This document shows, piece after piece, positions 9,525-24,523 of a stretch of 24,523 bases of DNA (position 1 is the first letter of the stretch; each line of letters begins with the position of its first letter). Origin of the DNA: Myxococcota bacterium (GTDB taxonomy: Bacteria > Myxococcota_C > UBA6777). The stretch lies in assembly GCA_023150835.1 (NCBI GenBank), contig JAKLKB010000107.1, forward strand, positions 1 to 24,523. Direction: 5' to 3'. A program made the position numbers and the translations under genes. The notes below the pieces were generated by a model that was not told the origin of the DNA, did no database searches, and saw nothing but the letters and a program-made list of their open reading frames with translations.

Positions 9525-11936
9525 ATGCCGAAAAGCACACCCGTTGAGGCGCTATCTGCTGCAAAACTACGTCGCCGCGTCGATCCTGCGCGCTTACAAG
9601 AACTTGAACGAACGATGACTGCCCCTGTTGATGCGGATCTTGTTGGCCAAGGCCGCGCCGTCGATGCGTTGTCCTTTGGTTTGGATATCGGTGTAAAGGG
9701 CTACAACGTCTTTGTGGTCGGCCCTCCGGGAACGGGGAAGACCAGTACCGTCCTGCGTTTGGTGCGCGAACGCGCTCGCAAAGAATCGCGCCCCCACGAC
9801 ACATGTTATGCCTACAACTTCGACGATCCGCATCGACCGCAAGTGTTGACCTTGCCTTCGGGGGTGGGGGCCAAGCTCGACAAAGAGCTTCAACAAAGTA
9901 CCTTGGCGCTTTCGCGTTCTATCGGACAGGCGTTGACGGACGAACATCTGATCCATCCAACCACCGCCGCCATCGAACAAGCGCGTGAAAAGCTGCGCGA
10001 GATCATGGTCGAACTACAAAAGATCGCCCACAACTACCAGTTGGAGTTGGAATCTGAAGACGATCAGTTTCTGCTCGTTCCGCTGATCGACGGAAAGCCC
10101 ATCGAACCCGAGGTTTTTGAGGAGCTTTCTCCCGAAGTGCAAGTCTCGCTGCAACACAACATCGCGGAGTTTCAACAAGAAGCTGCTCCGTTGATCCACG
10201 CACAGCGCGAGCAAGAGCGCATTATCCACGATGAGACGGCGATTATCGAGCGCCAAGCCATCCAGATCCTTGTCGAAAAGACCTTTGAGTCCCTACTCAA
10301 GCGCTTTTCTGTACATGGCGAAGCGGTGGCGCATTATCTCGAAGGGATGCAAGAATATGTGCTGGATCATTACCGAGAACTGTTGATCGGTGTGCGCGGC
10401 AGCAGCGACCCGATGATGGAACCCCGTTCCATCCGTGAGGCCGAGATCCCAACGGCTTATCGTCTCAATGTCCTCGTCACACACAAACAGCGCGGTGCGC
10501 CCGTGGAATTCGAGAAAGAGCCGACGCTGCCCCATCTCTTTGGCTATCTCGAATACCAAGACACGCAACAAGGGCTTGCTGCCGATCACATGATGATCCG
10601 CGCTGGATCGTTTCATCGCGCCAACGGGGGCTATCTTGTGGTACAGGCCGATGAATTGCTCCGATCTTCCGATGTTTGGTTTGGTTTCAAACGCGCTTTG
10701 CGCCACCGCGAGATCCGTATGCAAGATCTCTGGGCCGATCCTGACAAACCCCGTATCCAAGGGGTTTTGCGCCCGATGGAAGTTCCCACCCATCTCAAGG
10801 TCTTGTTGATCGGGAGCGTGGAAAGCTATTACGCCCTGATGAGCGAAGACGAAGACTTCCGCCGCATCTTTAAGATCAAGGCGGAGTTTGAGCCTTGGTT
10901 GACATGGGACGATGAACACGAAGTCGCGATGATGCGGATGTTGCAGCGTGTGGCGAAAGAGGAACAACTGCTTCCTGTCGATCCTTCGGGAGCGGCGCTG
11001 ATGATCGAAGAAGCGGCCCGAGAGATCGAGTCCCAAAGCAAGATATCTGCTTCGATCGCCGACGGTATCGACTTGTTGTGCGAGGCGGATCATTGGGCGC
11101 GTCACCGAAAAGCCGACGCCATCGCAGCGGATGATGTGCGTCGCGCTTTGTCTTTTCGCAACTATCGCAACGAGATCCTCGAACGCAATATCCACGAATC
11201 CATCAACAAAGGCGAAACGCTGATCGACACAAACGCCCTTGTGATCGGGCAAGTCAACGGTCTGTTGGTGTACGCTGCCGTCGATCATCGCTTTGGTATC
11301 CCCACCAAGATCACAGCACGCACCTACGCAGGCGAAGACGGCATCCTCAACATCGACCGTGAAGCCAATCTATCGGGCATTATCCACGACAAAGGCGCGA
11401 TGATCCTTGTGGGTTATCTTGGGGGCCTTTTTAGCCAGCATCATCCGTTGTCTTTTAGTGCAAGCGTCACCTTCGAGCAGATCTACGGCGAGATCGAAGG
11501 CGACTCCGCTTCGTGCGCCGAGTTATACGCCTTGCTGTCGAGTCTTGCGCAAGCCCCCATCCAACAAGGTATCGCCATCACCGGCTCGATCAACCAACAA
11601 GGTTATCTCCAACCCATCGGCGAAGTGAACCTCAAAGTCGAAGGGATGTTTAAGATCTGCAAACATCGCGGATTGACGGGCAAACAAGGCGTGATCATCC
11701 CCATCCAAAATGCCGAACATCTCATGCTCTCCGAAGAAGTCATCCAAGCCGTCGAACAAGGTCTCTTTCACCTCTGGCCCCTCCACCACGTCGACCAAGG
11801 CATCCCGATCTTGATGGGCCTCAACGCAGGCACCCAACACGAAGACCTCTCTTGGACGCCCTGCTCTCTCTACCAACGCGTCCAGCAGCGTCTTGACCGC
11901 TTCCACGAGATCACTCGCTCTCAAAAAATCCGCTAA
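9525..11936 (+). CDS. Lon-family ATP-dependent protease (LonB/LonC-like)
   Basis: The product has 803 residues; GGAGAGG lies 6-10 bases before ATG 9525. Walker A is GPPGTGKTS at ~66-74. An AAA core follows that is interrupted by a long helical segment (~110-270, rich in Q/E, likely coiled coil), as in the AAA_32/LonB-like group, and HRANGGYLVVQADELL matches the Walker B region. The C-terminal Lon protease domain has EGDSASC with Ser661 as nucleophile and GEVNLKVEG with Lys704. The 43-residue gap equals that of the E. coli Lon Ser679-Lys722 dyad. The N-terminal LON substrate-binding domain of LonA is absent, and no membrane helix is seen. It probably degrades misfolded or regulatory proteins in the cytoplasm. 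The gene ends in a TAA that is part of a MITE-like element. Confidence 0.9.
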   Translation: MPKSTPVEALSAAKLRRRVDPARLQELERTMTAPVDADLVGQGRAVDALSFGLDIGVKGYNVFVVGPPGTGKTSTVLRLVRERARKESRPHDTCYAYNFDDPHRPQVLTLPSGVGAKLDKELQQSTLALSRSIGQALTDEHLIHPTTAAIEQAREKLREIMVELQKIAHNYQLELESEDDQFLLVPLIDGKPIEPEVFEELSPEVQVSLQHNIAEFQQEAAPLIHAQREQERIIHDETAIIERQAIQILVEKTFESLLKRFSVHGEAVAHYLEGMQEYVLDHYRELLIGVRGSSDPMMEPRSIREAEIPTAYRLNVLVTHKQRGAPVEFEKEPTLPHLFGYLEYQDTQQGLAADHMMIRAGSFHRANGGYLVVQADELLRSSDVWFGFKRALRHREIRMQDLWADPDKPRIQGVLRPMEVPTHLKVLLIGSVESYYALMSEDEDFRRIFKIKAEFEPWLTWDDEHEVAMMRMLQRVAKEEQLLPVDPSGAALMIEEAAREIESQSKISASIADGIDLLCEADHWARHRKADAIAADDVRRALSFRNYRNEILERNIHESINKGETLIDTNALVIGQVNGLLVYAAVDHRFGIPTKITARTYAGEDGILNIDREANLSGIIHDKGAMILVGYLGGLFSQHHPLSFSASVTFEQIYGEIEGDSASCAELYALLSSLAQAPIQQGIAITGSINQQGYLQPIGEVNLKVEGMFKICKHRGLTGKQGVIIPIQNAEHLMLSEEVIQAVEQGLFHLWPLHHVDQGIPILMGLNAGTQHEDLSWTPCSLYQRVQQRLDRFHEITRSQKIR

Positions 11937-12218: not shown

Positions 12219-12302
12219 GCCGAAGTGGTGGAATTGGTAGACACACTATCTTGAGGGGGTAGCGGGCGTAAGCTCGTGTCGGTTCGAGTCCGACCTTCGG
12301 CA
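12219..12302 (+). tRNA. tRNA-Leu (anticodon GAG)
   Basis: The acceptor stem GCCGAAG pairs with CTTCGGC, with discriminator A at 12302. The anticodon stem CTATC/GGTAG encloses the loop TTGAGGG with anticodon GAG. There is a long variable arm (around CGGGCGTAAGCTCG), as expected for Leu, and a GGTTCGAGTCC T-arm. CCA is not fully encoded. It reads CUU/CUC codons. It marks the border between the plus-strand genes and the minus-strand CRISPR region. Confidence 0.96.
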
Positions 12303-12311
12303 CACTCTGAA

Positions 12312-12578: not shown

Positions 12579-13088
12579 TCACTTGACGATCCAGTTGCCA
12601 CCGCGCCCTTTGGCGGGGATGGTGAGGCGCTGTCGCTGTCGGGTTGCGGAAAATTTTAGCTGAATGCCTGCAAGAGAAAAGCGGATCTCTTCTTCGTTTG
12701 GTGCTTCGGATGTTTGGTTTTTTGGGGCCGCTTCTTCCCAAGGGAAGGCCGCTTCGGAGTCTTCTGGAAGAACACGCACAGCACCCGCGAGATCTTCGCC
12801 AAGATAAGAGAGTAGAAAAAACTCCCTTTCAGTATGGACAGCAGCTTGCTTGGCGATCAGTTCTCGCAGGATTCCTTCGGGTAAAAGGTTGGAAAACCAA
12901 GCGTGTAGGCGTTGGCGTCGGTGGTGGATCGCGTCGAGGTTGTCCAAAAAGATCTGGCCCAAGACGGGTCTTTGCGCCATTTCTTTGTAACTATCGAGAA
13001 AGCGAAAGGATATCCCGGTCTGATCGTTTGCTAGAGTGAGATGGCGGTGGTACGGTGCTTTTTTGAGAGTGCATCGCGCCAAAGCCAA
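12579..13088 (-). pseudogene. HipA-like toxin fragment (N-terminal part only)
   Basis: The frame has 169 residues. GISFRF..SYKEMAQRPVLGQIF, the HAWFSNLLPEGILRELIAKQ block, GEDLAGAVRVLPED and FSLAGIQLKFS..GRGGNWIVK match, in order, the N-terminal region of HipA-family Ser/Thr kinases. In complete proteins (about 400-440 residues) the kinase core follows GRGGxWIVK; here a TGA comes at once and a dispersed repeat begins just beyond. All kinase catalytic residues are therefore missing. The first ~15 residues overlap the DUF262 frame and may not be native. No HipB antitoxin is visible. It is most likely a decayed remnant; a stand-alone N-domain protein (as HipS in HipBST) is possible but the cut falls at an unusual place for that. 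Confidence 0.72.
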
Positions 13089-14111
13089 CGGACAAGGAGT
13101 TCTTGGCTGCGGGGCAGTGGGGTGGGGTGGTGGTGAAAGAACTTGCCGAGGAGAACAAAGCTTTGTGGGTAAGGCAAAAGCTCGATGTGAGAGAAGGCTG
13201 CCTTTTCTTTTAGAAAGATCACAGCCCGTTTGGCGGCTTCTGTAGTTGAAATAGCGGACTCTTCGAGAACTTGGGCAGTCATGGAAAAGAGGTGCTTGCG
13301 GGAAGGCGTGCGTCCGAGGATAGCGAACAGCAAGCGAAAAAGCAGCGGGTGTGGGACTTTTCCAAAGGACAGGCTTTGAAGGTGTTCTGCGATCTGTGAA
13401 ATGTCGGTGGGAGCGTCTTTTGGGGCGCGTGCGCGGTCGATTGCGTCGAAGACTTCGTCTTGGCGCATTACTTTTGCTGTGGAGTGGGTACGTTCAAAGA
13501 CTTCGCGAGGGATATCTTCGGATGCTGTGCGGAGAATACACGCAGGGATCTCGTATTCACGGAGGCGTTTTGCAACGTGGAAGGCTTGCTGCCGTCGTTC
13601 GAGGCAGGGTTGCTGTTCAAGAAGCCATCGAGAGAGATGTTCTGGATCAAGCAGACGGGTCATCGGAAGCCAACGCGAAGGCTCTGCATCGGTCTGTTTT
13701 TTTATGCGCTTTTTTGAACGGTATGGGATCTTCGTGGTCGAGATCAAAGAAGAAGGCGGAGTCCTCTTCGGAGGGCCAAAACGCATCAAGCAGAGCGAGG
13801 ATGCGCTGTTGCCCATCGACAACCCAAAGAGCATCGTTGCGCTCGGAAGCGTGGATGGAGAAGCGGCCCAAGCGTACAAGGCTCGGAGGAGCGTGTGTTT
13901 CCCAAAACAGCAAGATGCCGATGGGATAACCGCGATAAAGGCTGTCAAGTAGTTTTTGGCGGTCGTGATCTTCCCAACGGAAGGGGTTTTGGAAAGGAGG
14001 GATGCGTACACGCCCGCGCTTCACATCGGCCAAGAGGCTTTCGATCTGAAAGGTTGTTGTTTCGGTGGTGCGGTCGAGATCTTGGGTGGATTTTTTCTTG
14101 TGTTCGTCCAT
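13031..14111 (-). pseudogene. DUF262 (GmrSD/ParB-like) protein, frameshifted
   Basis: The N-terminal frame (14111-13647) has RGRVRIPPFQNPFRWEDHD, DSLYRGYPIGILLFWE and VVDGQQRILALLDAF, the DUF262/ParB-like signature with the DGQQR motif. It runs into a stop after KKAHKKT. The family continues in another frame (down to 13031): YEIPACILR, REVFERTHSTAKVMRQDEVFDA, then a helical C-terminus. The switch falls at a T7 on the plus strand (13697-13703, A7 in the message); skipping one base there joins the frames into about 359 residues. Related proteins act in type IV restriction (GmrSD) and other defence. It may be a real frameshift, a homopolymer sequencing error, or transcriptional slippage. It is the last gene downstream of the CRISPR operon, 100 bp after TIGR03986. 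Confidence 0.78.
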
Positions 14112-14211: not shown

Positions 14212-15894
14212 TCAGCCTTTTGCCCACTCGCGCAGTTTCTCTTGTGCTTGCTTTTGGACGCCTTTGGGATTTTTTTCCCAACTGCCTGCTTTTTGCAACC
14301 CATCGATGATGGCTTTGGCCCATGCTGCGCGGTGCTCTTTGGGTGGAGCGTTTTGATCGATGCGCTGATTTTTCAGATACAAGAAGAACTTGTCGGGGCG
14401 CGCTGCAAACTCCGCAAAGATCTCTGCAACGCTGTCTTCGATGGAGAATTGCGCTGTTTGCTTGACTTCGGGAGGGCGGCCGAGCAGATGTTCTCGATGG
14501 AACTCCAGCCAACCTTTTTCATCGGCCCCGAACATCTGTCGAAAAGCCCACTCCACAAGAACGGCTTGATCGGAACCCTCTGGAAGACTTCGGAAGGTCT
14601 CGATGTCAGACTTCAAACCCGAAAGTAAGTTGGGAGCGTACCTTTGGGCTGCAAGCTTCCGGCAAAGCGGATGGAGCGTCGAAAAAGAATCCCATATCTG
14701 CCCAAGGTTGTTGGTTTTGACCCACGACGGTGTTGTGTCGACTTCTTGTGGGGCGGATTGGGGGGTGATCTCTGGTGGAGCGCTCAAAGGTTTGCAGGAC
14801 TGTTTCTCCGCCCATCCAAGGGCCTCATCTACAGGCCGGAGTGGGACTTGCGAATGGTCTTTGAACCACGCATGACCGGGAAAACCAAAGGAACGGGGGA
14901 GCCTCTCTGTGGCTTCAAAACAAAGCATCTTGCGTAGATCGTCGAGGGCTTGGTTGTCTTCAAAGAGTTGTTTGCGCTTTTCTTGGATATCTCTGGGGAG
15001 TTGCTGGAGGTAGATGGTTTCGGTGTTGTCGCCCATCTCTTCGCCAAGATAGCGCGCCCTTGCATCTTCGATCACCATCCGTTCGATCTCGATCTTGACC
15101 GAACCAAGCCCGAATGATTTGCCTCGTCCCATCTTGTGCAATAGGCCCGACTCAAGGGCAAGCGCGTAATGAAGCAGCGCCACCAAACGCGCATCAAGCC
15201 CCGCAAAGTTCACTTGAAATACGAACATGGAACCCGCCTTGACGGGATGAAGCGTCGAATAGCCCGTTTGTCCTGATTTGTTCGGGTCGCTCTTCGATAT
15301 CTTCGTTTGTGCGCTCTTTTGGTGGTGATAAAACTTCTGGCGTGAGATCCCCTGTTGAGGGCCATAAAAGGCGGTGTGATGGGCACGTGGAGAGCTTTGG
15401 TAGAGGTACAGGGTCTCGCCTCTTGCGACGAAAACTTGGTTGTCTTTTTGGTAGGGCTTGGCATCGCTGATCTGAACGCGCCCACGAAGCAGCTTGGCGT
15501 TTGGCCCGTGCGTCATGTTGCCAAATAGCGCGCAGGTCGGGCAGATATAGTCCCCGTCACACAAAAACTCTGCTTTATTCGATCCACCCGATACGATCGA
15601 AACACAGCCGCGCCCGGCAAACTCCGCTACGGAACGCACCACGCCCTTGATCGAGGCTCCCGGGATCTGCTGCGCTTCGTGGAAAGGTTTTGATTGGGCT
15701 TGTGCGTTGATCTCAAGTGGTGTATAGGCCACAAGCTTACATTCAAACCGTCCACTGTAACTTTTGGTGCTCCTGTGGGTTCTCGGATCCGAAAAGAAGG
15801 TCGAGATATCGCGTGGATAACAACGGTCGACAGGAGCGGGTCGCTGCAATATACGGAAGGGATACGTCACGTTTGATTTTGGATCTTGGGGCAT
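14212..15894 (-). CDS. CRISPR-associated RAMP protein, TIGR03986-like
   Basis: The product has 560 residues; GGAG lies about 9 bases before ATG 15894. Residues ~45-300 are a RAMP/Cas7-like fold: FECKLVAYTPLEI, the glycine-rich IPGASIKGVVRS (77-88), ICPTCALFGN (Cys pair, likely zinc), and GRGKSFGLGSVKIEIER as the C-terminal RAMP loop. The GxDx[ST] aspartate of slicer-type Cas7 is absent before IPG, so target cleavage by this subunit is unlikely. A region of about 250 residues of unknown fold follows (~310-560), helical and charged, ending QAQEKLREWAKG. It starts 19 bp after Csx19 and is probably the last gene of the operon. The TIGR03986 family accompanies type III loci with Csx10. Its position in the complex is unknown. 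Confidence 0.78.
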   Translation of the reverse strand: MPQDPKSNVTYPFRILQRPAPVDRCYPRDISTFFSDPRTHRSTKSYSGRFECKLVAYTPLEINAQAQSKPFHEAQQIPGASIKGVVRSVAEFAGRGCVSIVSGGSNKAEFLCDGDYICPTCALFGNMTHGPNAKLLRGRVQISDAKPYQKDNQVFVARGETLYLYQSSPRAHHTAFYGPQQGISRQKFYHHQKSAQTKISKSDPNKSGQTGYSTLHPVKAGSMFVFQVNFAGLDARLVALLHYALALESGLLHKMGRGKSFGLGSVKIEIERMVIEDARARYLGEEMGDNTETIYLQQLPRDIQEKRKQLFEDNQALDDLRKMLCFEATERLPRSFGFPGHAWFKDHSQVPLRPVDEALGWAEKQSCKPLSAPPEITPQSAPQEVDTTPSWVKTNNLGQIWDSFSTLHPLCRKLAAQRYAPNLLSGLKSDIETFRSLPEGSDQAVLVEWAFRQMFGADEKGWLEFHREHLLGRPPEVKQTAQFSIEDSVAEIFAEFAARPDKFFLYLKNQRIDQNAPPKEHRAAWAKAIIDGLQKAGSWEKNPKGVQKQAQEKLREWAKG

Positions 15895-15913
15895 CGGTCA
15901 CTCCGCTGTCTTT

Positions 15914-16600
15914 TTACCGCCATCGCAAGGCGGCGTATCGTTCAAAACACGACTCTCCGCTTGGATTTTTGTACATCCGAACTTCCAGATGAAGGCGCTT
16001 TTTGGAGCCGCCTTGCTCTGCAAGCAGATCTTTGCTGCATAGCGAAAGTTGTTGTAGCTCGACATGGTATGTGTTGGAGGACGCTTCGCCTCTCGCCTTG
16101 GGTGCCTCGTTTGCATCGGAGGCATCGTCCGTATCGTCGGAAACATCGTCTTTATCGTCGAAAGACTCGTTGCTTTCGCCTGTTTCGCCTGTTTCGTCTT
16201 CGTCGAGGACGCTGTCGTTGTTCTCGTCGGATGAATCGGGCAACACGAACGATGGCGAGCGCTCCAATTCGTTGCGCAGTTCCAAAGAAGCGTCATCGAG
16301 TTCTGTTGGGGCATAAGCCGCGTCTTCGCCGAGATACACTACGCGATACACGCCACGATCCAGCCGCTTCCAGCGCAACTCCCCATCCTTCCAAAAGATG
16401 CGTACGTGCAGGCTGTCTTTGAGTGGGTGGTCCGCTTCTTTGAGGCGCTGCACTTCTTCTTTGAGGCGCTGCACTCGTCCCAGCCATGCTCGATCGATCC
16501 ACTCTGCCCAGATATACGCCTCTTTTGGCCAAGGCGCTTGTTCCAAAAGGGCGACCCACCGATCGGGGGCCAGATCCGAAGATCGTAGGATGCTGCTCAT
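15914..16600 (-). CDS. csx19: Csx19-like type III-D CRISPR protein with acidic insert
   Basis: The product has 228 residues. ATG 16600 overlaps the TGA of the upstream RAMP gene (ATGA) and has GGGAGG before it; longer frames upstream would read through that gene. LHVRIFWKDGELRWKRLDRG..RVVYLGED (65-92) matches the 'EARVFNExAELRW...VLLSE' pattern I associate with Csx19 (TIGR03984), and the C-terminus RLHLEVRMYKNP..GESCFERYAALRWR fits the final strands. Residues ~123-167 are almost entirely Asp/Glu/Ser/Asn (about half acidic) and probably disordered, which is unusual. Csx19 marks III-D loci; its biochemical role is not established. The identification rests on one motif block and context. Confidence 0.62.
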   Translation of the reverse strand: MSSILRSSDLAPDRWVALLEQAPWPKEAYIWAEWIDRAWLGRVQRLKEEVQRLKEADHPLKDSLHVRIFWKDGELRWKRLDRGVYRVVYLGEDAAYAPTELDDASLELRNELERSPSFVLPDSSDENNDSVLDEDETGETGESNESFDDKDDVSDDTDDASDANEAPKARGEASSNTYHVELQQLSLCSKDLLAEQGGSKKRLHLEVRMYKNPSGESCFERYAALRWR

Positions 16601-17565
16601 CGCCCTCCCCCGCTTGATTCGGGCATCCCGTCGCGCCATACACGTGGCTGCAAGCCTTGATTCCACTGATCTTGCGGAAGGTAGGCTTGAAGAGCGCGTC
16701 GACTCCAAGACAACAGTTGCTTGCGTTTTTCTTCTGTATCCAGCGCGTACACGTTCCAGACGCCATCTTCTTGTGCAGGCGGCAAGATATCATCGAGCGC
16801 TTCAGGTGCTTTCCCAAAGCCATACTGCGCTTTTTCTTGTTTGGTTGCGCGAGCCTCGATGCCAAGGATCTTTTGGCCCGTATAATCGAACGGATAACGC
16901 AAGCTGATATGGCGGATGTGGGCCTTGACATGTCCCAAACCACGAGAGGTCCCCAGTCCCAACGGTAGGCGTTCTTCTTCCATGTCCCGCAGACCCAACG
17001 CCAACAGCCCCAACTGCCACGACTCGAAGTTCTCGATCGCAAGGGAGGTTTGGAAGATCCCTTTGATCACCACCATCAGATCGTACTTTGCGCCTGTGGC
17101 TGCGCCGCCTGTTTTTCGATCGATGGCAACCCCATCGCGCACTTCGGTTTTGACTTCACCTTTTGCGTAGCCGTCCGTAAAAAAGGTACGCCCTCGAAAC
17201 GCCAAAGAGCCAAAGATCTTGCAAGCCATACACGAACACCGATACAACTCAGGCGTCGGAAGTTCCGACTTTTCAAGGCGCTTTCCGCAAGAGCGCTCTG
17301 GATGCTCTGCTTCAAACAGATAAGGCAGACAAACGGGTGTTTTTTCTGGCAAAAGCGTACGCACGATGCGTTCGCAATGGCTGCGTAGCACGCCTTTGAG
17401 GCTGGTTCCCGGGATATAGGGTTTGGCCTCTTCGCCGATGGCGTAAGTGACCACAGGCGACATATCGGGACCGTGAATGCTTTCTTGGCCGCTTTTGATC
17501 AACAGCGGGCCTTTGACTTCGATATCAAATGAGATCTGTGCGCTACACAACAAACGCTTACGCAT
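16597..17565 (-). CDS. Csx7/Csm3-like RAMP (Cas7 backbone subunit)
   Basis: The product has 322 residues. ATG 17565 lies 8 bases inside the end of the previous gene and follows AGGAGG. The order is typical of Csm3/Csx7: an N-terminal strand (ISFDIEVKGPLLI), SGQESIHGPDMS with Asp34 at the position of the Csm3 catalytic Asp33, YIPGTSLKGVLRSHCERI (50-67), a Cys-rich insertion (C..C.C..C around RCSCMACKIFGS), DGVAIDRKTGGAATGAKYD and the loop GLGTSRGLGHVKAHI. Family knowledge: these subunits form the crRNA-binding filament and cut target RNA every 6 nt. Its neighbour upstream is a paralogue. The C-terminal ~80 residues (EEKRKQLLSWSRRALQAYL) are helical and extend past the core. Confidence 0.85.
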   Translation of the reverse strand: MRKRLLCSAQISFDIEVKGPLLIKSGQESIHGPDMSPVVTYAIGEEAKPYIPGTSLKGVLRSHCERIVRTLLPEKTPVCLPYLFEAEHPERSCGKRLEKSELPTPELYRCSCMACKIFGSLAFRGRTFFTDGYAKGEVKTEVRDGVAIDRKTGGAATGAKYDLMVVIKGIFQTSLAIENFESWQLGLLALGLRDMEEERLPLGLGTSRGLGHVKAHIRHISLRYPFDYTGQKILGIEARATKQEKAQYGFGKAPEALDDILPPAQEDGVWNVYALDTEEKRKQLLSWSRRALQAYLPQDQWNQGLQPRVWRDGMPESSGGGR

Positions 17566-18355
17566 GGGTGGCCTCCTGTTCCAAACCTTTGCGGAGATCG
17601 GCTTTAATCTCTTCCAATGTAAGGTTTTGCATGGTGCGATCGAGCAGATAAGGCAGCCGATCTTTGGGGCGGCGCAGATCGACGCGCTGGTAGGTGGCGT
17701 CTTTCAGTTCGGCTGCACCGAAGCCTCGCGTCGTCATCCCGCCCAAGTGGACTTCTCGCGTCCATTCGAGGAAGGTCATCTGTAGCAGCCGCTCTTCTTT
17801 CTCGGTGATATTTTCGGCTTGCAGCAAAAAGTCGAATTGTGCGCCCGCAGGCACCACATCGTAATCGTACTTGACGTTCGGAACCGCTGTTCCTGCGTCT
17901 CGATCGATCCCGACACCATCGCGACGTTCGAGGGCACCTGCCCACGAAGAACAAGGCCCATCTTGAAAATACACTTTTCCTTTGGCGAGGCTCGAACCAA
18001 ATAGCTTGCAGATATCACACAGATGCTTGTCGAGGATCGATTCGATCTCGTGTTCGCTTTTGGCGCGGTGTAGGGCCTCTAGGTATCTTTTGGAGAGCTC
18101 TTGGTTTCCGCCCGCGCAGACGCCTTGATGTTTATCCAAAAAGCAGGTCGAGGCTCCCAAAAAATGACACAGACGCTCTGTGGTCGAACGGAAGACGCCT
18201 TTGAGCGAAGAACCCGGCAACAGCGGCTTGCCTGCATAATCCAGCAATACGGACATATCCGTCCCTGACTCGCTTTCGTTGCCTGTTCCAAGATGAAACG
18301 CCGCCCGAAATACCAATTTCCCCGAAAGGCGGACGCGATTTTGTAAGTGCAGCAT
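17558..18355 (-). CDS. Csx7/Csm3-like RAMP (Cas7 backbone subunit)
   Basis: The product has 265 residues. ATG 18355 has GAGGAG 7 bases upstream; the open frame continues upstream to 18553 but that part is the antisense of the preceding gene's tail. It carries FHLGTGNESESGTDMSVLLD with Asp33 at the Csm3 slicer position, LLPGSSLKGVFRS (about 45-57), a Cys pair LCDICKLFGSSLAKG, RRDGVGIDRDAGTAVPNVKYD and the loop GGMTTRGFGAAEL. It resembles the next gene closely enough for them to be duplicates, and their coding regions overlap by 8 bp. It should be a second crRNA-backbone subunit with target-RNA cleaving ability. Confidence 0.85.
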   Translation of the reverse strand: MLHLQNRVRLSGKLVFRAAFHLGTGNESESGTDMSVLLDYAGKPLLPGSSLKGVFRSTTERLCHFLGASTCFLDKHQGVCAGGNQELSKRYLEALHRAKSEHEIESILDKHLCDICKLFGSSLAKGKVYFQDGPCSSWAGALERRDGVGIDRDAGTAVPNVKYDYDVVPAGAQFDFLLQAENITEKEERLLQMTFLEWTREVHLGGMTTRGFGAAELKDATYQRVDLRRPKDRLPYLLDRTMQNLTLEEIKADLRKGLEQEATHA

Positions 18356-18425
18356 ATCGTCTCCTCGATGTCTGGTGCAGATCAAAGCACGCATCTGCGT
18401 TTGCCTTTGTGCGTGCCGTCTCGTT

Positions 18426-19022
18426 CTATCTCTTTGATGGCGGCTTGCCTTTCGACGCCTCTTGTTTTTTGGGCTCGTCTTTTCGTTGTTCGCCTTTTCC
18501 CTTGGGTTGGGCATTTGGGGTGTTGGCGCCTTGGTTGCCCTTGGGTTGGGCATTTGGGGCGCTGGTGGCTTGGTGGTTTTTGGAAGGATTGTCTTGGCTG
18601 ACGAATTGGGCTGCGAAGGTCAGTTTGGCTGCGACTCGTCCAACGAACAACAAACACAGCGCATCTTGAAGGGGCGGAGCGACTTGTTCGCACAAACCTT
18701 TGAGCGTGATCTGCCCGTTGTCTTGGGGCTGTTCGAGATATCGGCCCCACAACAGCCAAAAGGATTCGTAATTGCCTTCTTTGGTCTTGCCCGGATGCTG
18801 TTTTTCGTAGGCTTCTTTGTTTTTGCGATCGCGTTGTTTTTGATGGTTGACCAGCTCTCGCAAGCCTTTTTGCCCTGCGCCTGTGGTATGCGATACCAAC
18901 GCATGCAGTTGTGAACGCGAGATCGCTTTGTTTGGCGGGTTGGCTTGATAAGACTGATAAAACGCCTCGATAGAGGCTTCCAAAAGATCGTCGAAGGCTG
19001 CGGAACGAAGAGACTGCGCCAT
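18426..19022 (-). CDS. Small helical protein with repetitive basic tail; candidate complex subunit
   Basis: The product has 198 residues; GGAAG lies 7-11 bases before ATG 19022, and the previous gene stops 4 bases upstream. Residues 1-~135 look all-helical (AFDDLLEASIEAFYQSYQ, FWLLWGRYLEQ, PPLQDALCLLFVGRVAAKL). The rest is a low-complexity tail with a duplicated PNAQPKG block and a Lys/Glu-rich end (KGKPPSKR). No family is recognised. By place and helical character it could be the Cas11 (Csm2/Cmr5-type) small subunit, or share that role with the gene before it. The basic tail could touch RNA; that is inference. Confidence 0.7.
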   Translation of the reverse strand: MAQSLRSAAFDDLLEASIEAFYQSYQANPPNKAISRSQLHALVSHTTGAGQKGLRELVNHQKQRDRKNKEAYEKQHPGKTKEGNYESFWLLWGRYLEQPQDNGQITLKGLCEQVAPPLQDALCLLFVGRVAAKLTFAAQFVSQDNPSKNHQATSAPNAQPKGNQGANTPNAQPKGKGEQRKDEPKKQEASKGKPPSKR

Positions 19023-19026
19023 GACG

Positions 19027-19512
19027 TTATCTTCCCTTTTTGTCGATGGTTTCGTAAAGATAGGCGCTGTGAAGGTGACGTAAAGCAACCGAAGCGATCT
19101 TGAGACGCAAGGTGTTTTTCTGCTCGCCTTCTGCTTCGCCGATCTCTTGGCTGAACTGTTTTTGGTGCTCGCCCCATGCTTTGTCAGCTTTTTGACGGAG
19201 GCTCTCTAAAAAGCCGAGAGTGGCCTCACCCAGCGTCTGCTTCTTTCCGTCGTCCAAAGTCAGCCAGCCTTCTTGCTTTGACTTTTCTTTCCCTGTTTGG
19301 CGTTGGATGTAGGCCGTGATGTCGTGGAATCGTCGTGTCGAAAAGCCAAGAACTTCGAGGTGAGAGACTTGTGTCTTGCTTTTGCCGCTGCCGAAAGCTT
19401 TGGCCATGTGGCGCGCAAGTCTTCGGAGTTCCTTGAGCAGATCTTCGGACTCAAGCACTCCGTTGGCGGTTTTTTCAAAGGCAAGGGTGTATTCGCTGCT
19501 AAAGTTAGGCAC
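19027..19512 (-). CDS. Small helical protein, candidate Cas11 (small subunit)
   Basis: The product has 161 residues. GTG 19512 is chosen because GGAG precedes it by 7 bases and the upstream gene stops 16 bases before; an in-frame extension to 19701 would overlap csx10. The protein is mostly helical and strongly charged (DLLKELRRLARHMAKAFGSGK, LGFLESLRQKADKAWGEHQKQF, LRLKIASVALRHLHSAYLYE). Its length fits Csm2/Cmr5-like small subunits, which line the inner filament and contact the target. No diagnostic motif was found, so this is context-based. It follows csx10 directly in the operon. Confidence 0.7.
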   Translation of the reverse strand: MPNFSSEYTLAFEKTANGVLESEDLLKELRRLARHMAKAFGSGKSKTQVSHLEVLGFSTRRFHDITAYIQRQTGKEKSKQEGWLTLDDGKKQTLGEATLGFLESLRQKADKAWGEHQKQFSQEIGEAEGEQKNTLRLKIASVALRHLHSAYLYETIDKKGR

Positions 19513-19528
19513 GGGCGTTCTCCTTTTT

Positions 19529-20689
19529 TCAAACAACCAAAGGCAGATGGATCGGGGCGCAGACGATGATCTGCCCAAAGCCTTCTTCGCGTCTTTCGCC
19601 GATCCCCTGTGCTTCAAGTTCTTGTAGCTTCGACAACAGATCTTTTCGTGGCAGCGGGCTTTTGGCGTACAGAACAGAGCCTGCCGAAAGCCCCCATTCA
19701 TCGTCCTTGTGGATACGGTGGACCACGTTCCACGTCGCGAGGTGAACCGATTTGACGTGCTGATAGGGATCGTTTAGCTCGACGATCTCGCCGACCGCTA
19801 CTTGTAGATCCAGATGATTCCGTAAGTAGCGATCCAAGAGGATGGTTGGCGTTCGCAACAGGATCGCAAAAGCCCCGTCTCCTTGGCTTTTTTGAAACTG
19901 TGCAAGTCGCGCCTCCAACGCAGGGCGCTGTTGTTTTTGCAGCGTCATACGAACCTGCCCAAACCCCCGTGATCGCTCGCTCCCAAGGAACATCGGCGTT
20001 TTACAAAGCTCTTGGAGCTTTTCGAGATAGCGCTCTTCCACCCGACCCACCCCCGCAAAAACAGCAGGCTGCTTTTTGAGAAGGCTTGTCTCGTTTGCCC
20101 CCGCTGCTTCGTTCCGCCACACATCATCCACCGCAGAACGGCCATACAAGATCCCACCCGCTGTACTGCCCGTTGTGGCGTCCAGCCCTACACCCATGCG
20201 GCTTCGATAACTCACGCGGGGCGGCATCTCTTGGCTCTTTTGGTAGGCGTACACATAACCCGCAAAAGGCTTGCGATCTTCCCCACAGCCCGCAGGCTTC
20301 GCATTGGACCCTGTTTTGGCGGAAAGAGTGTGGTTGCATTGAAAGCGTTTGCCGAGTTCTTCTTCTTTTCCTGCGGCGTAGTAGCACAACAAGTCTTCGA
20401 CGCCGTGTTTGTTCGGACCGCCGTGGCGTTTGCATGAAACTGTTGTCAGCGGATAGGGGCTGCTTTGCCAAGAACCCGGATACAAGAAGGGATAGCGTTG
20501 TTGGCCTTGTGTGAACAGTCGATAAAAATCGTCCCCAAGCCCATAACGCCGAATCCATGCGCTTGCAAACATTCCGCGCAAGGTACTGCCCGGGATATAA
20601 CCAAGGGTCTCGGGAAATTGTTCGTTGCGCTTCTTTTTGATCGTAAAGGGCGATTGCAAGGTCGCTTCAAAGGCTACATCGATCCACAT
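19529..20689 (-). CDS. csx10: Csx10, Cas5-like RAMP of type III-D CRISPR
   Basis: The product has 386 residues. ATG 20689 has GAGGACG upstream; an in-frame start at 20734 has no better site. The N-terminus MWIDVAFEATLQSPFTI leads to YIPGSTLRGMF (31-41) without the slicer Asp. The middle has Cys at CNH and AGCGED and a glycine-rich GSTAGGILYG. MFLGSERSRGFGQVRM is a first RAMP loop, and the C-terminal GIGERREEGFGQI (362-374) is the sequence I recognise as typical of Csx10. Two RAMP-type loops point to a double-RRM protein. Csx10 is thought to act as the Cas5/Csm4-like subunit that holds the crRNA 5' handle and contacts Cas10. Confidence 0.87.
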   Translation of the reverse strand: MWIDVAFEATLQSPFTIKKKRNEQFPETLGYIPGSTLRGMFASAWIRRYGLGDDFYRLFTQGQQRYPFLYPGSWQSSPYPLTTVSCKRHGGPNKHGVEDLLCYYAAGKEEELGKRFQCNHTLSAKTGSNAKPAGCGEDRKPFAGYVYAYQKSQEMPPRVSYRSRMGVGLDATTGSTAGGILYGRSAVDDVWRNEAAGANETSLLKKQPAVFAGVGRVEERYLEKLQELCKTPMFLGSERSRGFGQVRMTLQKQQRPALEARLAQFQKSQGDGAFAILLRTPTILLDRYLRNHLDLQVAVGEIVELNDPYQHVKSVHLATWNVVHRIHKDDEWGLSAGSVLYAKSPLPRKDLLSKLQELEAQGIGERREEGFGQIIVCAPIHLPLVV

Positions 20690-20749
20690 GATGCGCGTCC
20701 TCTCTCTTGTTTTCGGTCTCTCTTTGATCGACAAACACGGCTGCTTTTT

Positions 20750-21526
20750 TTAGGATTTCTGCCGCTGTGCTTCCCAGATATCTGTTGTTTCGGAGGCCAG
20801 CGGAGCCATCAAAAAAGCCATCTGCTCGCGCAACGAGCCTTTGTTGTTTAACTCGTAAGGATCTGGATCAAGGCCGATGGTTTGGACTTGCGCGACGATG
20901 CTGCCTGCGCCTGTCGACCGATGCCCGCCGATGTACGAAAGCATACACAGCCCGCCCAACAACAGCGCTAGTGCTGGATCTTGGCTGTCTTTGTTCAATG
21001 TCCGCCAGCACCAGATCTCGCCTTCCATCGTTTCACGCAGCGCGTACACGGTGTCGAAGAGGCTTTGATGGCGGGGCCTGCCCAACCGACGGTCGATCTG
21101 GATGCGTTTGCGCACCGACTCTGCATGGTTAGAAGATGTCAGCTTCACATCCGAAAAGACCGCATGGATCTCTTCTTGTGCAGGGACGCCAAAGATCGCA
21201 TTCAGCCATGTTTGGTAATACAAGTGCGTGAATTTGCCTTCGTGGTGTCGGGTGAGTGAAAGCCCCATCGCTCGGCAGAGATCCGTACACTTGTCTCGAA
21301 GATTTCCCTTGAGTGTCGACCCCGGGATATAAGGTCGACCATGCCCGTCCTTGACAAAGGTGAGATCCACGCCCCTGCGCCCTACGCCTGAACCACAAAA
21401 TAGCCGATCCATCGACATATTTTCAGGTTCTTCTGAGAGCGGTGTACGCTCTTTTTGCGGAGATTGCGGAACCAAACGATAGCGTAGATGGATCTGAGTC
21501 AAGCCTGTCGTCTGCTCGGTACGCAT
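20750..21526 (-). CDS. Cas7-like RAMP (Csm3-type)
   Basis: The product has 258 residues. ATG 21526 lies 3 bases after the cas10 stop, with AAGGAG inside the cas10 end. LFCGSGVGRRGVDLTFVKD has Asp54 in the G-x-D-[LM]-[ST] setting of slicer Cas7 proteins, then YIPGSTLKGNLRDKCTDL; a RIQIDRRLGR block and the loop GGHRSTGAGSIVAQV follow. It lacks the Cys-rich insertion of the two Csx7-like paralogues, so it is a separate lineage. Its place next to cas10 suggests it sits at the end of the filament nearest Cas10, which is inference. Confidence 0.82.
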   Translation of the reverse strand: MRTEQTTGLTQIHLRYRLVPQSPQKERTPLSEEPENMSMDRLFCGSGVGRRGVDLTFVKDGHGRPYIPGSTLKGNLRDKCTDLCRAMGLSLTRHHEGKFTHLYYQTWLNAIFGVPAQEEIHAVFSDVKLTSSNHAESVRKRIQIDRRLGRPRHQSLFDTVYALRETMEGEIWCWRTLNKDSQDPALALLLGGLCMLSYIGGHRSTGAGSIVAQVQTIGLDPDPYELNNKGSLREQMAFLMAPLASETTDIWEAQRQKS

Positions 21527-21529
21527 GGC

Positions 21530-23203
21530 CTACTCCTTTTCAACGGGTTGGGGGCGACTGGCGGGCTCGCCTGCTTTGAGCCGATTTGCGGACTCGTTGG
21601 CTTCCAGATGAGCCGAAGGTTCGGCGATGTACGGATAAAGCGTCGCAAAATCCAACGCCGAGGTACTTCGACGAGCCTTTGCTTTGGTGCTGCGCCAAGG
21701 TGGGGCATCCATGCCGAGTTGCTCGAAGAATTCCAGCAATGCGTTGCGTTGATCTGCATGAAGCCGTGTCAACAAGCGATAGGTCTCAAATTCTGTGCGG
21801 CTGCCTTCTTGAAAGAGCAGATCAGCCAGTTGATTGACGCGCCCTTTGCGTAAACCTGCCTCAATTAAGCGGTCGCATTGCTTTTGAAATCGTGCTGCTT
21901 CCGAGCAAGAGCGCGGCCATTCGGTCAAAGAGGTGCCATCTTTCAACCGCAGATCTTCTTCTCGGATATCCGCGAGATCGACGTAGTGTGTTTGGGACAC
22001 ATCCGCGAGATCGAGAAAGGGTTCATTTTTTGGGGAGGCTTCCTTTGTGGCCAGTTTTTCCGAAGATGACCCTTTTGAGGCCAAACCCAAAGACGTGTTT
22101 CTGTGCTCGGCTTCGACCTCGGACTTGCGCCGTTTGGCGCTCTTGAGGAGCTCTTCGGCTTGCTCCAAGACGACGCGAAAGGGCTGGGTGGAACGTGCGA
22201 TCGCGATACCAAAAGAGATCGTTAATCCGTTCCCGCAGTGCGTTTTGAAAAAGTCTTTGTCTTTGAACTCTTTTTGGGTGAGTTCTTGGAAGCGTTGAGC
22301 GGCTTGGATCGCAAAGCGCAGCGCAAGATCCACCCGCAGCACCATCACAAGGTCATCCCCCCCAAGCAACAAGATATCCGCAGGCAGGATCAGCCTTTTT
22401 TTTCGCAAATAGGGGGCCGGCAACAGCTTCTTCAACGTCTCATAGGTCGCTTGACGCAAGGCTCCATCCACCGTCTTTGAAAAGATGCGATAGGTTTCTT
22501 CGTTTGGGATATCTTTGACGATACGGCCCATCGCATCCCCGTCTGCGTACAGCAGCGCGATGTAATCTTTTCTCGTGATCGAGGCTGCGCCGATATCATT
22601 GAAGCTCTCAGGACGCCACAGATTCTTCTTTGCGTCTTGTTGGCCGTAGTATTCCAGCAATTCTTTCCATGCTGGCCCGTTTCCACGATTCAACCGCTTT
22701 TCGTTGCATACGCGGCAGATCTTTTTGTCTTTGTCTTTGGTGCTGTACTCGGCTGGGTTCTGGGCGCAACTGGCGCAAGCACGCCACATCCCGAAGTGAC
22801 TTCGTGGGTAGGCTTGGGCTTTTTGGCTATAACGTCGCTTCGCAAGGCGACTGTGTAGGCTGCTCACCTCTTTTTTGAAGTCGCCCCGTTGCTCGCAAAT
22901 CGCGTATTCGATAGACAATCCGCCGCCGCTCTTTGATGAAACCCGACGTTGGTAACTCTCCAAAAAATCCAAGATCTCTCTTTCGTTCGGGCAGTCCTTG
23001 ACACAAAACAGCGCACTGCCGCCTCCCGCGTAAATCAACCGATGACGCGGTTCGGGAAAGGCTTGTTTGAGCGAGCGTTCAAGGGTGTCACGGTTGAGTT
23101 GATCGAGGATCGCCGAGCCACCCCGAATCTCGCCCGCGGGGCTTGTTCCAAAGACAAAGGACTTGATGGAAGGAAAGTCTATCAATACCAAGCGATCTGT
23201 CAC
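21530..23203 (-). CDS. cas10: Cas10, HD-less, with intact GGDD cyclase motif
   Basis: The product has 557 residues. GTG 23203 has AAGGAG 7 bases upstream and gives the strand MTDRLVLIDF that opens the first palm domain (IRGGSAILDQLN, IYAGGGSALFCV). Cys143, 146, 163 and 166 (CASC...CRVC) form a likely zinc finger. The second palm has YADGDAMGRI (219-228) and LLGGDDLVMVL with GGDD at 281-284, then THCGNGLTISFGIAIA. The C-terminus is helical (D4-like), preceded by a low-complexity linker (~360-400). There is no N-terminal HD nuclease domain, so no ssDNA cutting is predicted, while cyclic oligoadenylate synthesis is. It is the second gene of the operon. Cas10 is the large subunit of type III complexes. 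Confidence 0.9.
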   Translation of the reverse strand: MTDRLVLIDFPSIKSFVFGTSPAGEIRGGSAILDQLNRDTLERSLKQAFPEPRHRLIYAGGGSALFCVKDCPNEREILDFLESYQRRVSSKSGGGLSIEYAICEQRGDFKKEVSSLHSRLAKRRYSQKAQAYPRSHFGMWRACASCAQNPAEYSTKDKDKKICRVCNEKRLNRGNGPAWKELLEYYGQQDAKKNLWRPESFNDIGAASITRKDYIALLYADGDAMGRIVKDIPNEETYRIFSKTVDGALRQATYETLKKLLPAPYLRKKRLILPADILLLGGDDLVMVLRVDLALRFAIQAAQRFQELTQKEFKDKDFFKTHCGNGLTISFGIAIARSTQPFRVVLEQAEELLKSAKRRKSEVEAEHRNTSLGLASKGSSSEKLATKEASPKNEPFLDLADVSQTHYVDLADIREEDLRLKDGTSLTEWPRSCSEAARFQKQCDRLIEAGLRKGRVNQLADLLFQEGSRTEFETYRLLTRLHADQRNALLEFFEQLGMDAPPWRSTKAKARRSTSALDFATLYPYIAEPSAHLEANESANRLKAGEPASRPQPVEKE

Positions 23204-23331
23204 GGATCTTCTCCTTCGTTAAAGGCTACGCATCAACGCCCTTGTCGCGGCGTGGGCGACTCGGCGTCTATCCTCTCCAAAAAGCAAAACGTCGTGTCGG
23301 TTTGCTTTCTGACTTGTTTTCGTCTCGCTTT

Positions 23332-24114
23332 TCAGTTGGGGACTGGGGGGGCTGGATCGGTGGTGGGTTGGGGGCGTTTTTGCTTTGCGGCCTTGACCGC
23401 TTCTTCGAGACCTGCACGAAGCTTGCGTGCATTTTCGGCAAACGAAGGCTCATCTTTGGTGTAATCGTCGATCGCACGAAGAAAGGAGTGCGTGGCGTTG
23501 ATCCATTCTCGGCGGGCGGTATGTTCGCGGGTCGATGGATCACTTTTCCAATCGAGGTCTTTGCGGGTTTGAACTTGGGCATCGAGCTGTTTGCCTGCTT
23601 CGATGATCTGGTCAAGTACCCAAGCGAGGCTGTGCGTCCCCAGTTTGCACTGCTCCAACACCGCTAGTTTGTCGGGGTATTGTTGCGAACGCTCTGCAAG
23701 TCGAAGCGCGATGCCAGCTTCTTCGTCGAAGGAGCGTTGGGTCACTTGGAGTCCATCGGGCAAGAAAAAATCCAGCGCGTCTTGAAGTGTACGTTGTTGC
23801 TCGGTGCGCTCTTGCGTGTTGGGTGATCGCAGGGAGGCGAGGTGGGTGAACGCTTGCAACGCCGTCGACAAGCAGCGGTGTCCTTCGTCAAATAGCTGAT
23901 CAAAGGTTTGTAGAGCATCGCGCACTTTTTGTTTTTCGAGGCTGTAGGGATCGATATCTTTTTGCGTGCTTTGTCGCAACGCTTCGCAGCGTTGTTCCAG
24001 CCGAGGCAAGTGAACCGCCAAATAAGCATGCGGCTCGATCAGGCTTCTTTGTGGTCCTGTCCATGTTTGACTTTGTACCAACATCTTTTCCGTACTCAGC
24101 GCCTTTAGATCCAT
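23332..24114 (-). CDS. Unknown helical protein, first gene of the CRISPR operon
   Basis: The product has 260 residues. ATG 24114 is preferred because GGCGGAG precedes it by 7-8 bases. The frame stays open to 24306, but that extension is a Lys/Glu-rich low-complexity stretch with no Shine-Dalgarno. The protein is almost wholly helical and charged (VRDALQTFDQLFDEGHRCL, LGTHSLAWVLDQIIEAGKQL, FAENARKLRAGLEEAVKAAK) and ends in a Pro-rich PAPPVPN tail. No Cys cluster, signal peptide, membrane segment, HEPN R-x4-6-H pair or nuclease motif is evident. It ends 128 bp before cas10. I do not recognise the family. It could be an accessory or regulatory CRISPR protein or unrelated. Confidence 0.72.
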   Translation of the reverse strand: MDLKALSTEKMLVQSQTWTGPQRSLIEPHAYLAVHLPRLEQRCEALRQSTQKDIDPYSLEKQKVRDALQTFDQLFDEGHRCLSTALQAFTHLASLRSPNTQERTEQQRTLQDALDFFLPDGLQVTQRSFDEEAGIALRLAERSQQYPDKLAVLEQCKLGTHSLAWVLDQIIEAGKQLDAQVQTRKDLDWKSDPSTREHTARREWINATHSFLRAIDDYTKDEPSFAENARKLRAGLEEAVKAAKQKRPQPTTDPAPPVPN

Positions 24115-24310: not shown

Positions 24311-24523
24311 AGGGAAAGGGGGTTCGCGACCGACTTTTTTGTTGAGCGTCAACAGAGAGGGGGGTTCGTGACCGACTTTTTTGTTGAGCGTCAACAGAGA
24401 GGGGGGTTCGTGACCGGCTTTTTTGTTGAGCGTCAACAGAGAGGGGGGGGCGTGACCGACTTTTTTGTTGAGCGTCAACAGAGAGGGGGGTTCGTGACCG
24501 ACTTTTTTGTTGAGCGTCAACAG
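24311..24523. repeat. 42-bp tandem satellite, five units, cut by the window end
   Basis: GTTGAGCGTCAAC recurs at 24341, 24383, 24425, 24467 and 24509, exactly 42 bases apart. A partial unit starts at 24311. The unit is GTTGAGCGTCAAC (inverted repeat GTTGA/TCAAC) + AGAGAGGGGGGTTCGTGAC + CGACTTTTTT. Units differ by only a few bases (one A-to-G, one TT-to-GG). It has no unique spacers, so it is not a CRISPR array. Because 42 is a multiple of 3, long frames stay open on both strands (14-residue units such as KKVGHEPPSLLTLN on the minus strand); I do not call a gene from this. The 24115-24310 stretch between it and the first operon gene holds the Lys/Glu-rich open frame and no clear promoter. Confidence 0.92.

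What the first reader, a model, noticed from the sequence alone, without database searches (positions are those of the whole stretch)
14212..24114. Ten-gene type III-D-like CRISPR effector operon without adaptation genes, Cas6 or array
Cas10, Csx10, Csx19-like, TIGR03986-like, three Cas7-like RAMPs and three unassigned helical proteins run in one tight minus-strand cluster. The sequence shows no Cas1, Cas2, Cas6 or CRISPR repeat-spacer structure. Known III-D loci have Csx10/Csx19; this exact set of ten, including the two small proteins and the first gene, is the part I cannot match to a described layout. It may borrow crRNAs from another array in the genome.
Basis: partly seen in the sequence, partly recalled or inferred. 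Interest (0 to 1): 0.65.

Follow-up and report, generated by a model that had tools for sequence, protein, structure and literature searches.

The report
Split type III-D CRISPR effector operon
This is an ordinary type III-D CRISPR immune complex whose guide-making and memory genes sit on another contig of the same genome; the only odd gene in the cluster belongs to a small uncharacterised protein family that tends to sit beside short tandem-repeat arrays.

Summary
The ten genes are real and tightly packed. Nine of them, in the order Cas10, Cas7, Csx10, Cas11, probable second Cas11, Cas7, Cas7, Csx19, TIGR03986-type Cas7, are the standard multi-gene (III-D1) effector. The same order occurs in at least two unrelated genomes (G017, G035) and matches published III-D1/III-Dv organisation, so the claim of an unmatched layout fails. 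The window is a whole contig ending in a 42-nt tandem repeat just upstream of the first gene, so the missing adaptation genes, Cas6 and array are a property of the contig. The same genome carries the complementary half on contig C183: Csm6, Cas6, RT-PrimPol, PrimPol, Cas1, Cas2 and a 42-repeat array, with no effector in the stretch read. In genome G091 a related module lies directly beside a III-D effector. Best explanation: a III-D RNA-targeting, signalling complex fed with crRNAs from C183 (truly distant or only split by assembly is open). The first gene (23332-24114) is not a recognisable Cas protein. It belongs to an uncharacterised helical family (nine copies in three genomes of this bacterial family), distantly like DUF6261, and strikingly often beside 41-43-nt tandem arrays. 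That side observation is more novel than the operon.

The parts
23332..24114 (-). gene K, first gene; 260 aa (ATG 24114, upstream GGCGGAG), predicted all-helical at low confidence, no Cas family match; DUF6261-like family found here only in this bacterial family
21530..23203 (-). cas10, 557 aa, no HD domain, palm with DGD and GGDD motifs, zinc-finger-like cysteines
20750..21526 (-). cas7 (first, Csm3-like), with candidate catalytic Asp (GVDLTF)
19529..20734 (-). csx10 (cas5 of III-D); likely real start ATG 20689
19027..19512 (-). cas11 (Csm2-like small subunit), 161 aa, GTG start
18426..19022 (-). probable second cas11 by position and helical pattern; sequence support weak; low-complexity C-terminal tail
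17558..18355 (-). cas7 (Csx7-type), candidate catalytic Asp in GTDMSV
16597..17565 (-). cas7 (Csx7-type), candidate catalytic Asp in GPDMSP
15914..16600 (-). csx19 with an acidic low-complexity insert
14212..15894 (-). TIGR03986-type terminal cas7 without the catalytic Asp; residues 326-560 (14215-14919) are an extra tail with no match in the III-D loci compared
24318..24523 (.). 42-nt tandem repeat, 4.9 copies, no spacers, runs off the contig end; related units on C183 and C201

Best explanation
Genes at 14212-23203 encode one type III-D1 effector complex: Cas10, Csx10 (Cas5), Csx19, three presumably RNA-cutting Cas7 proteins, a terminal non-catalytic Cas7 (TIGR03986) and one or two Cas11 small subunits. 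crRNAs are made in trans from the C183 array by the C183 Cas6 (the repeat end ATTGAAAC would be the 5' handle) and loaded onto the complex. Binding of matching phage or plasmid RNA lets the Cas7s cut that RNA and switches on the Cas10 cyclase; the second messenger activates the C183 Csm6 (CARF-HEPN) RNase. New spacers are acquired by the C183 RT-PrimPol/PrimPol/Cas1/Cas2 module. Shown here: gene content, order, motifs, and presence of the partner module. Inferred: assembly, crRNA sharing, signalling, RNA cutting.
For: Profiles. Cas10's only solved-structure sequence matches are both III-D complexes, 8bmw and 8s9t. The nine-gene order with two small genes is found in G017 and G035; G205, G043, G091 and others differ mainly in the number of small genes or in fusions. 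GGDD and DGD are present and the N-terminus starts at the palm, so no HD; Asp is retained in three Cas7s and lost in the terminal one. HD is present in only 3% of III-D Cas10s (PMC11229360). C183 carries Csm6, Cas6, RT-PrimPol, PrimPol, Cas1, Cas2 and a 42-repeat array. In G091 the effector lies beside a related Cas6, RT-PrimPol, Cas1, Cas2 and array; C183 Csm6 resembles Csm6 proteins beside III-D effectors in G017 and G043 (29-33% identity); C183 Cas6 resembles III-D-linked Cas6s (best E 7e-52) better than the III-B-linked C111 Cas6 does (best E 1e-11). Use of Cas6 in trans is usual in type III (PMC12669027).
Against: No expression or binding data. Several proteins score below NCBIfam cut-offs (Csx10 108 of 177 bits, TIGR03986 130 of 161, Csx19 32.7 of 35), so the system is divergent. 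A III-B effector with its own Cas6 on C111 could be a competing user of the C183 array. The set used for the Cas6/Csm6 comparison held mainly III-D loci, which biases it toward III-D matches.
Confidence: 0.8

Rival explanations
1. The effector and the C183 module are one contiguous III-D locus, split only by the assembly; the crRNA supply is then simply in cis.
For: C44 ends in a 42-nt tandem repeat and C183 ends inside its CRISPR array; C183 carries a related 42-nt repeat between cas2 and the array. In G091 effector and adaptation module are adjacent.
Against: The 42-nt unit also occurs on C201 with no CRISPR genes around it; no other contig carries the C44 repeat version or the C183 CRISPR repeat, so no join can be shown.
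Confidence: 0.35
2. The effector takes its crRNAs mainly from another array of the genome (those on C138, C149 or C237).
For: The genome has four Cas1 loci and several arrays; the C149 repeat also ends in ATTGAAAC.
Against: Cas6 was found only on C183 and C111, and only C183 combines Cas6, Csm6 and RT/PrimPol adaptation genes, all typical of type III.
Confidence: 0.12
3. An orphan or decaying effector with no working guides.
For: The gene just downstream (13034-14111, GmrSD-type) is frameshifted, so the neighbourhood has decay or sequence errors.
Against: All ten frames are open, most starts have ribosome-binding sites, and Cas10 and Cas7 motifs are intact.
Confidence: 0.07

Closest known systems
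Type III-D effector of Saccharolobus solfataricus (SsoCsm, 8bmw; PMC9945777), called III-D1 in PMC12669027
   Same: Cas10, a Cas5, several different single-domain Cas7 genes, separate Cas11
   Different: Different gene set in detail (five cas7-like genes and one cas11 there); here Csx19, probably two cas11 genes, an extra tail on the last Cas7, and gene K in front
Type III-Dv (Synechocystis, 8s9t; PMC11026444)
   Same: Order cas10, cas7, cas5, cas11, cas7, cas7, csx19, cas7; three candidate catalytic Cas7 sites
   Different: There the genes are fused (cas7-cas5-cas11, cas7-2x) and cas6, adaptation genes, array, Csm6 and Csx1 lie alongside; here all are separate genes and none of those lies on the contig
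RT-PrimPol and TPR-PrimPol adaptation modules (CART-CAPP, CAPP; PMC10415136, PMC8211822)
   Same: C183 carries PrimPol genes beside Cas1-Cas2, one fused to a reverse transcriptase
   Different: C183 has both an RT-PrimPol and a separate PrimPol in one run of genes, with no effector found next to it

Membership tests
type III CRISPR | Cas10 large subunit | tested here: met
subtype III-D | Csx10-type Cas5 | tested here: met
   PADLOC Cas5_IIId 2e-32; NCBIfam TIGR02674 4.7e-31 but 108 bits, below the 177 cut-off
subtype III-D | Csx19 (often present in III-D) | tested here: met
   TIGR03984 5e-8, 32.7 bits against a cut-off of 35; PADLOC Csx19 1e-7
subtype III-D1 | separate genes in the order cas10-cas7-cas5-cas11-cas7-cas7-csx19-cas7 | tested here: met
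subtype III-D1 | separate Cas11 small subunit | tested here: met
   19027-19512 matches a profile of small genes from other III-D loci, built without it, at 1e-12; its neighbour 18426-19022 is inconclusive
subtype III-D | assembles on crRNA and cuts target RNA | not testable with these tools
   needs biochemistry; candidate Cas7 Asp residues are present
type III-Dv / III-D2 | fused Cas7-Cas5-Cas11 or multi-Cas7 proteins | tested here: not met
   all subunits are single genes
type III-E / III-I | single-protein Cas7-11 effector | tested here: not met
   only partial matches, far below cut-off
DUF6261 (PF19775), for gene K | match to the family profile | tested here: inconclusive
   K itself does not match; one family member matches at 7e-4 and the G003 C184 copy at 1e-3 with 21 of 27 bits

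The most novel reading that the evidence does not exclude
Gene K is the III-D-linked copy of an undescribed module in this phylum: a helical, DUF6261-like protein encoded beside an array of 41-43-nt tandem repeats (unit differing from locus to locus), several copies of which sit in defence loci (III-D here, the gap between cas2 and the array on C138, antisense inside a type I restriction operon on C70 and inside DISARM in G003). Six of nine K copies have such an array within 600 bp against 4 of 212 control genes, and DUF6261 members in the same genomes also abut arrays.
Probability: 0.35. Interest if true: 0.6.

Novelty: new member of a known kind. Interest (0 to 1): 0.33.

Why it matters
It shows that an apparently incomplete CRISPR locus is explained by a partner module elsewhere in the same genome, and it adds a divergent III-D1 system from a phylum with only five genomes held. 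The by-product, a protein family tied to short tandem arrays and often found in defence loci, is a testable lead on an uncharacterised gene family.

Tried and rejected
AlphaFold models of K (two sequences, pLDDT 54) and of 18426-19022 (single sequence, pLDDT 45) were too weak for a fold search, which was not run. The 42-nt repeat as a CRISPR array: rejected, no spacers. K as a Cas11 relative: no support. K in phages, plasmids and viral contigs: none found. C183 array against phage genomes: no match. Hairpin potential of the array units: mixed, not a general rule. The second small gene as Cas11 by sequence: about 3-5% of shuffled sequences score as well, so only suggestive.

Full report
Observation. 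The window is all of contig C44 of a 7.56-Mb, 239-contig assembly. Ten minus-strand genes run from 24114 to 14212. Gaps between the nine cas genes are -8 to 70 bp and the first gene, K, is 128 bp ahead of cas10. Some likely starts differ from the longest frames: cas11 starts at GTG 19512, the next small gene at ATG 19022, the first Csx7-type cas7 at ATG 18355, csx19 at ATG 16600, csx10 probably at ATG 20689. No Cas1, Cas2, Cas6 or repeat-spacer array is in the window; the periodic DNA at 24318-24523 is a spacer-less 42-nt tandem repeat that runs into the contig end.

Identity of the genes. Cas10, Csx10, Csx19, three Cas7 proteins and the TIGR03986-type Cas7 are recognised by public profiles, several below curated cut-offs, so this is a divergent system. 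The gene at 19027-19512 belongs with the small-subunit genes encoded at the same place in other III-D loci (1e-12 against a profile built without it). Its neighbour 18426-19022 sits where other loci have a second small gene and is predicted helical, but its sequence match is weak. The last Cas7 carries a 235-residue tail not seen in the III-D loci compared.

Layout. Of 386 genomes sampled, 34 had a Csx10 match. G017 and G035, each in a family other than the window's, show the same nine-gene order including two small genes; G205, G043, G091 and others show it with one small gene or with fusions. PMC11026444 states that the III-D1 organisation is kept in the fused III-Dv operon. The layout is therefore known.

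Mechanism. Cas10 has DGD and GGDD motifs and no HD domain; three Cas7s keep the candidate catalytic Asp and the terminal one lacks it. HD is rare in III-D (3%) and that subtype is thought to act mainly through signalling (PMC11229360). The missing parts exist in the same genome: C183 has Csm6 (CARF-HEPN), Cas6, RT-PrimPol, PrimPol, Cas1, Cas2 and an array of 42 repeats ending in ATTGAAAC, running off the contig end. In G091 a related Cas6, RT-PrimPol, Cas1, Cas2 and array lie beside the III-D effector. Supply of Cas6 in trans is usual for type III (PMC12669027). Whether C183 and C44 are neighbours in the chromosome cannot be told: the 42-nt repeat is shared with C201 too.

Gene K. K has no Cas, Pfam, PHROG or solved-structure match of note. 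A family profile finds nine copies in three of the five genomes held for this phylum and none in the other genomes searched. Copies lie in front of III-D (C44), between cas2 and the array (C138), antisense inside what reads as a type I restriction operon (C70, assigned from sequence reading only), and antisense between drmMI and drmA of DISARM (G003); one is about 1 kb from a DNA-methyltransferase-like gene (G004, sequence reading only) and four have no obvious defence gene nearby. Six of nine have a 41-43-nt tandem array within 600 bp against 4 of 212 control genes (Fisher 1e-7), and two more show weaker 42-nt periodicity downstream. DUF6261 matches in the same phylum also adjoin such arrays, and one weak match adjoins a 32-nt array. 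The C44 array is upstream of K and belongs to the C183/C201 unit family, so it may be coincidental here. The nesting in defence loci rests on few copies and was not tested against a genome-wide count of defence genes. What this module does is unknown.

Verdict. A correct and useful reading of a type III-D1 operon, ordinary in layout, with its partner module found elsewhere in the genome; the first gene is a separate, more novel puzzle.

Noticed in passing
window 23332-24114; L014:5906-6640, L158:550-1275, L159:8462-9229, L099:9886-10902, L096:9323-10093, L097:9232-9996, L098:9435-10214, L160:9089-9934: K family genes lie next to 41-43-nt tandem arrays far more often than control genes (6 of 9 against 4 of 212), and several copies sit inside defence loci.
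   Followed up: partly
L179, L180, L181, L182, L184: DUF6261-like genes in the same phylum also adjoin 41-43-nt (L184: 32-nt) tandem arrays; unit sequences differ from locus to locus.
   Followed up: partly
L011:1406-15158 (G000 C183): Csm6, Cas6, RT-PrimPol, separate PrimPol, Cas1, Cas2 and a 42-repeat array in one run without an effector; two PrimPol genes in one adaptation module.
   Followed up: partly
L011:11443-11671, L056:15800-16030, window 24318-24523: Related 42-nt tandem repeats at three places in the genome; C183 and C201 also share a conserved downstream flank.
   Followed up: partly
window 13034-14111: GmrSD/DUF262-type gene (PADLOC PDC-M55C) split over two frames by an apparent frameshift, just downstream of the III-D operon.
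   Followed up: partly
window 12582-13037: HipA N-terminal-type domain in a short frame that stops early; tRNA-Leu (gag) lies beyond it at 12219-12303.
   Followed up: no
window 2581-6558 and 9525-11936: Large UvrD-type helicase (C-terminal part matches GajB-type profiles) containing 33-nt repeats, and a LonB-like AAA protease.
   Followed up: no
L004 (G000 C111): A second type III effector (Cmr/III-B type by gene reading) with its own Cas6 and no array in the stretch read.
   Followed up: partly
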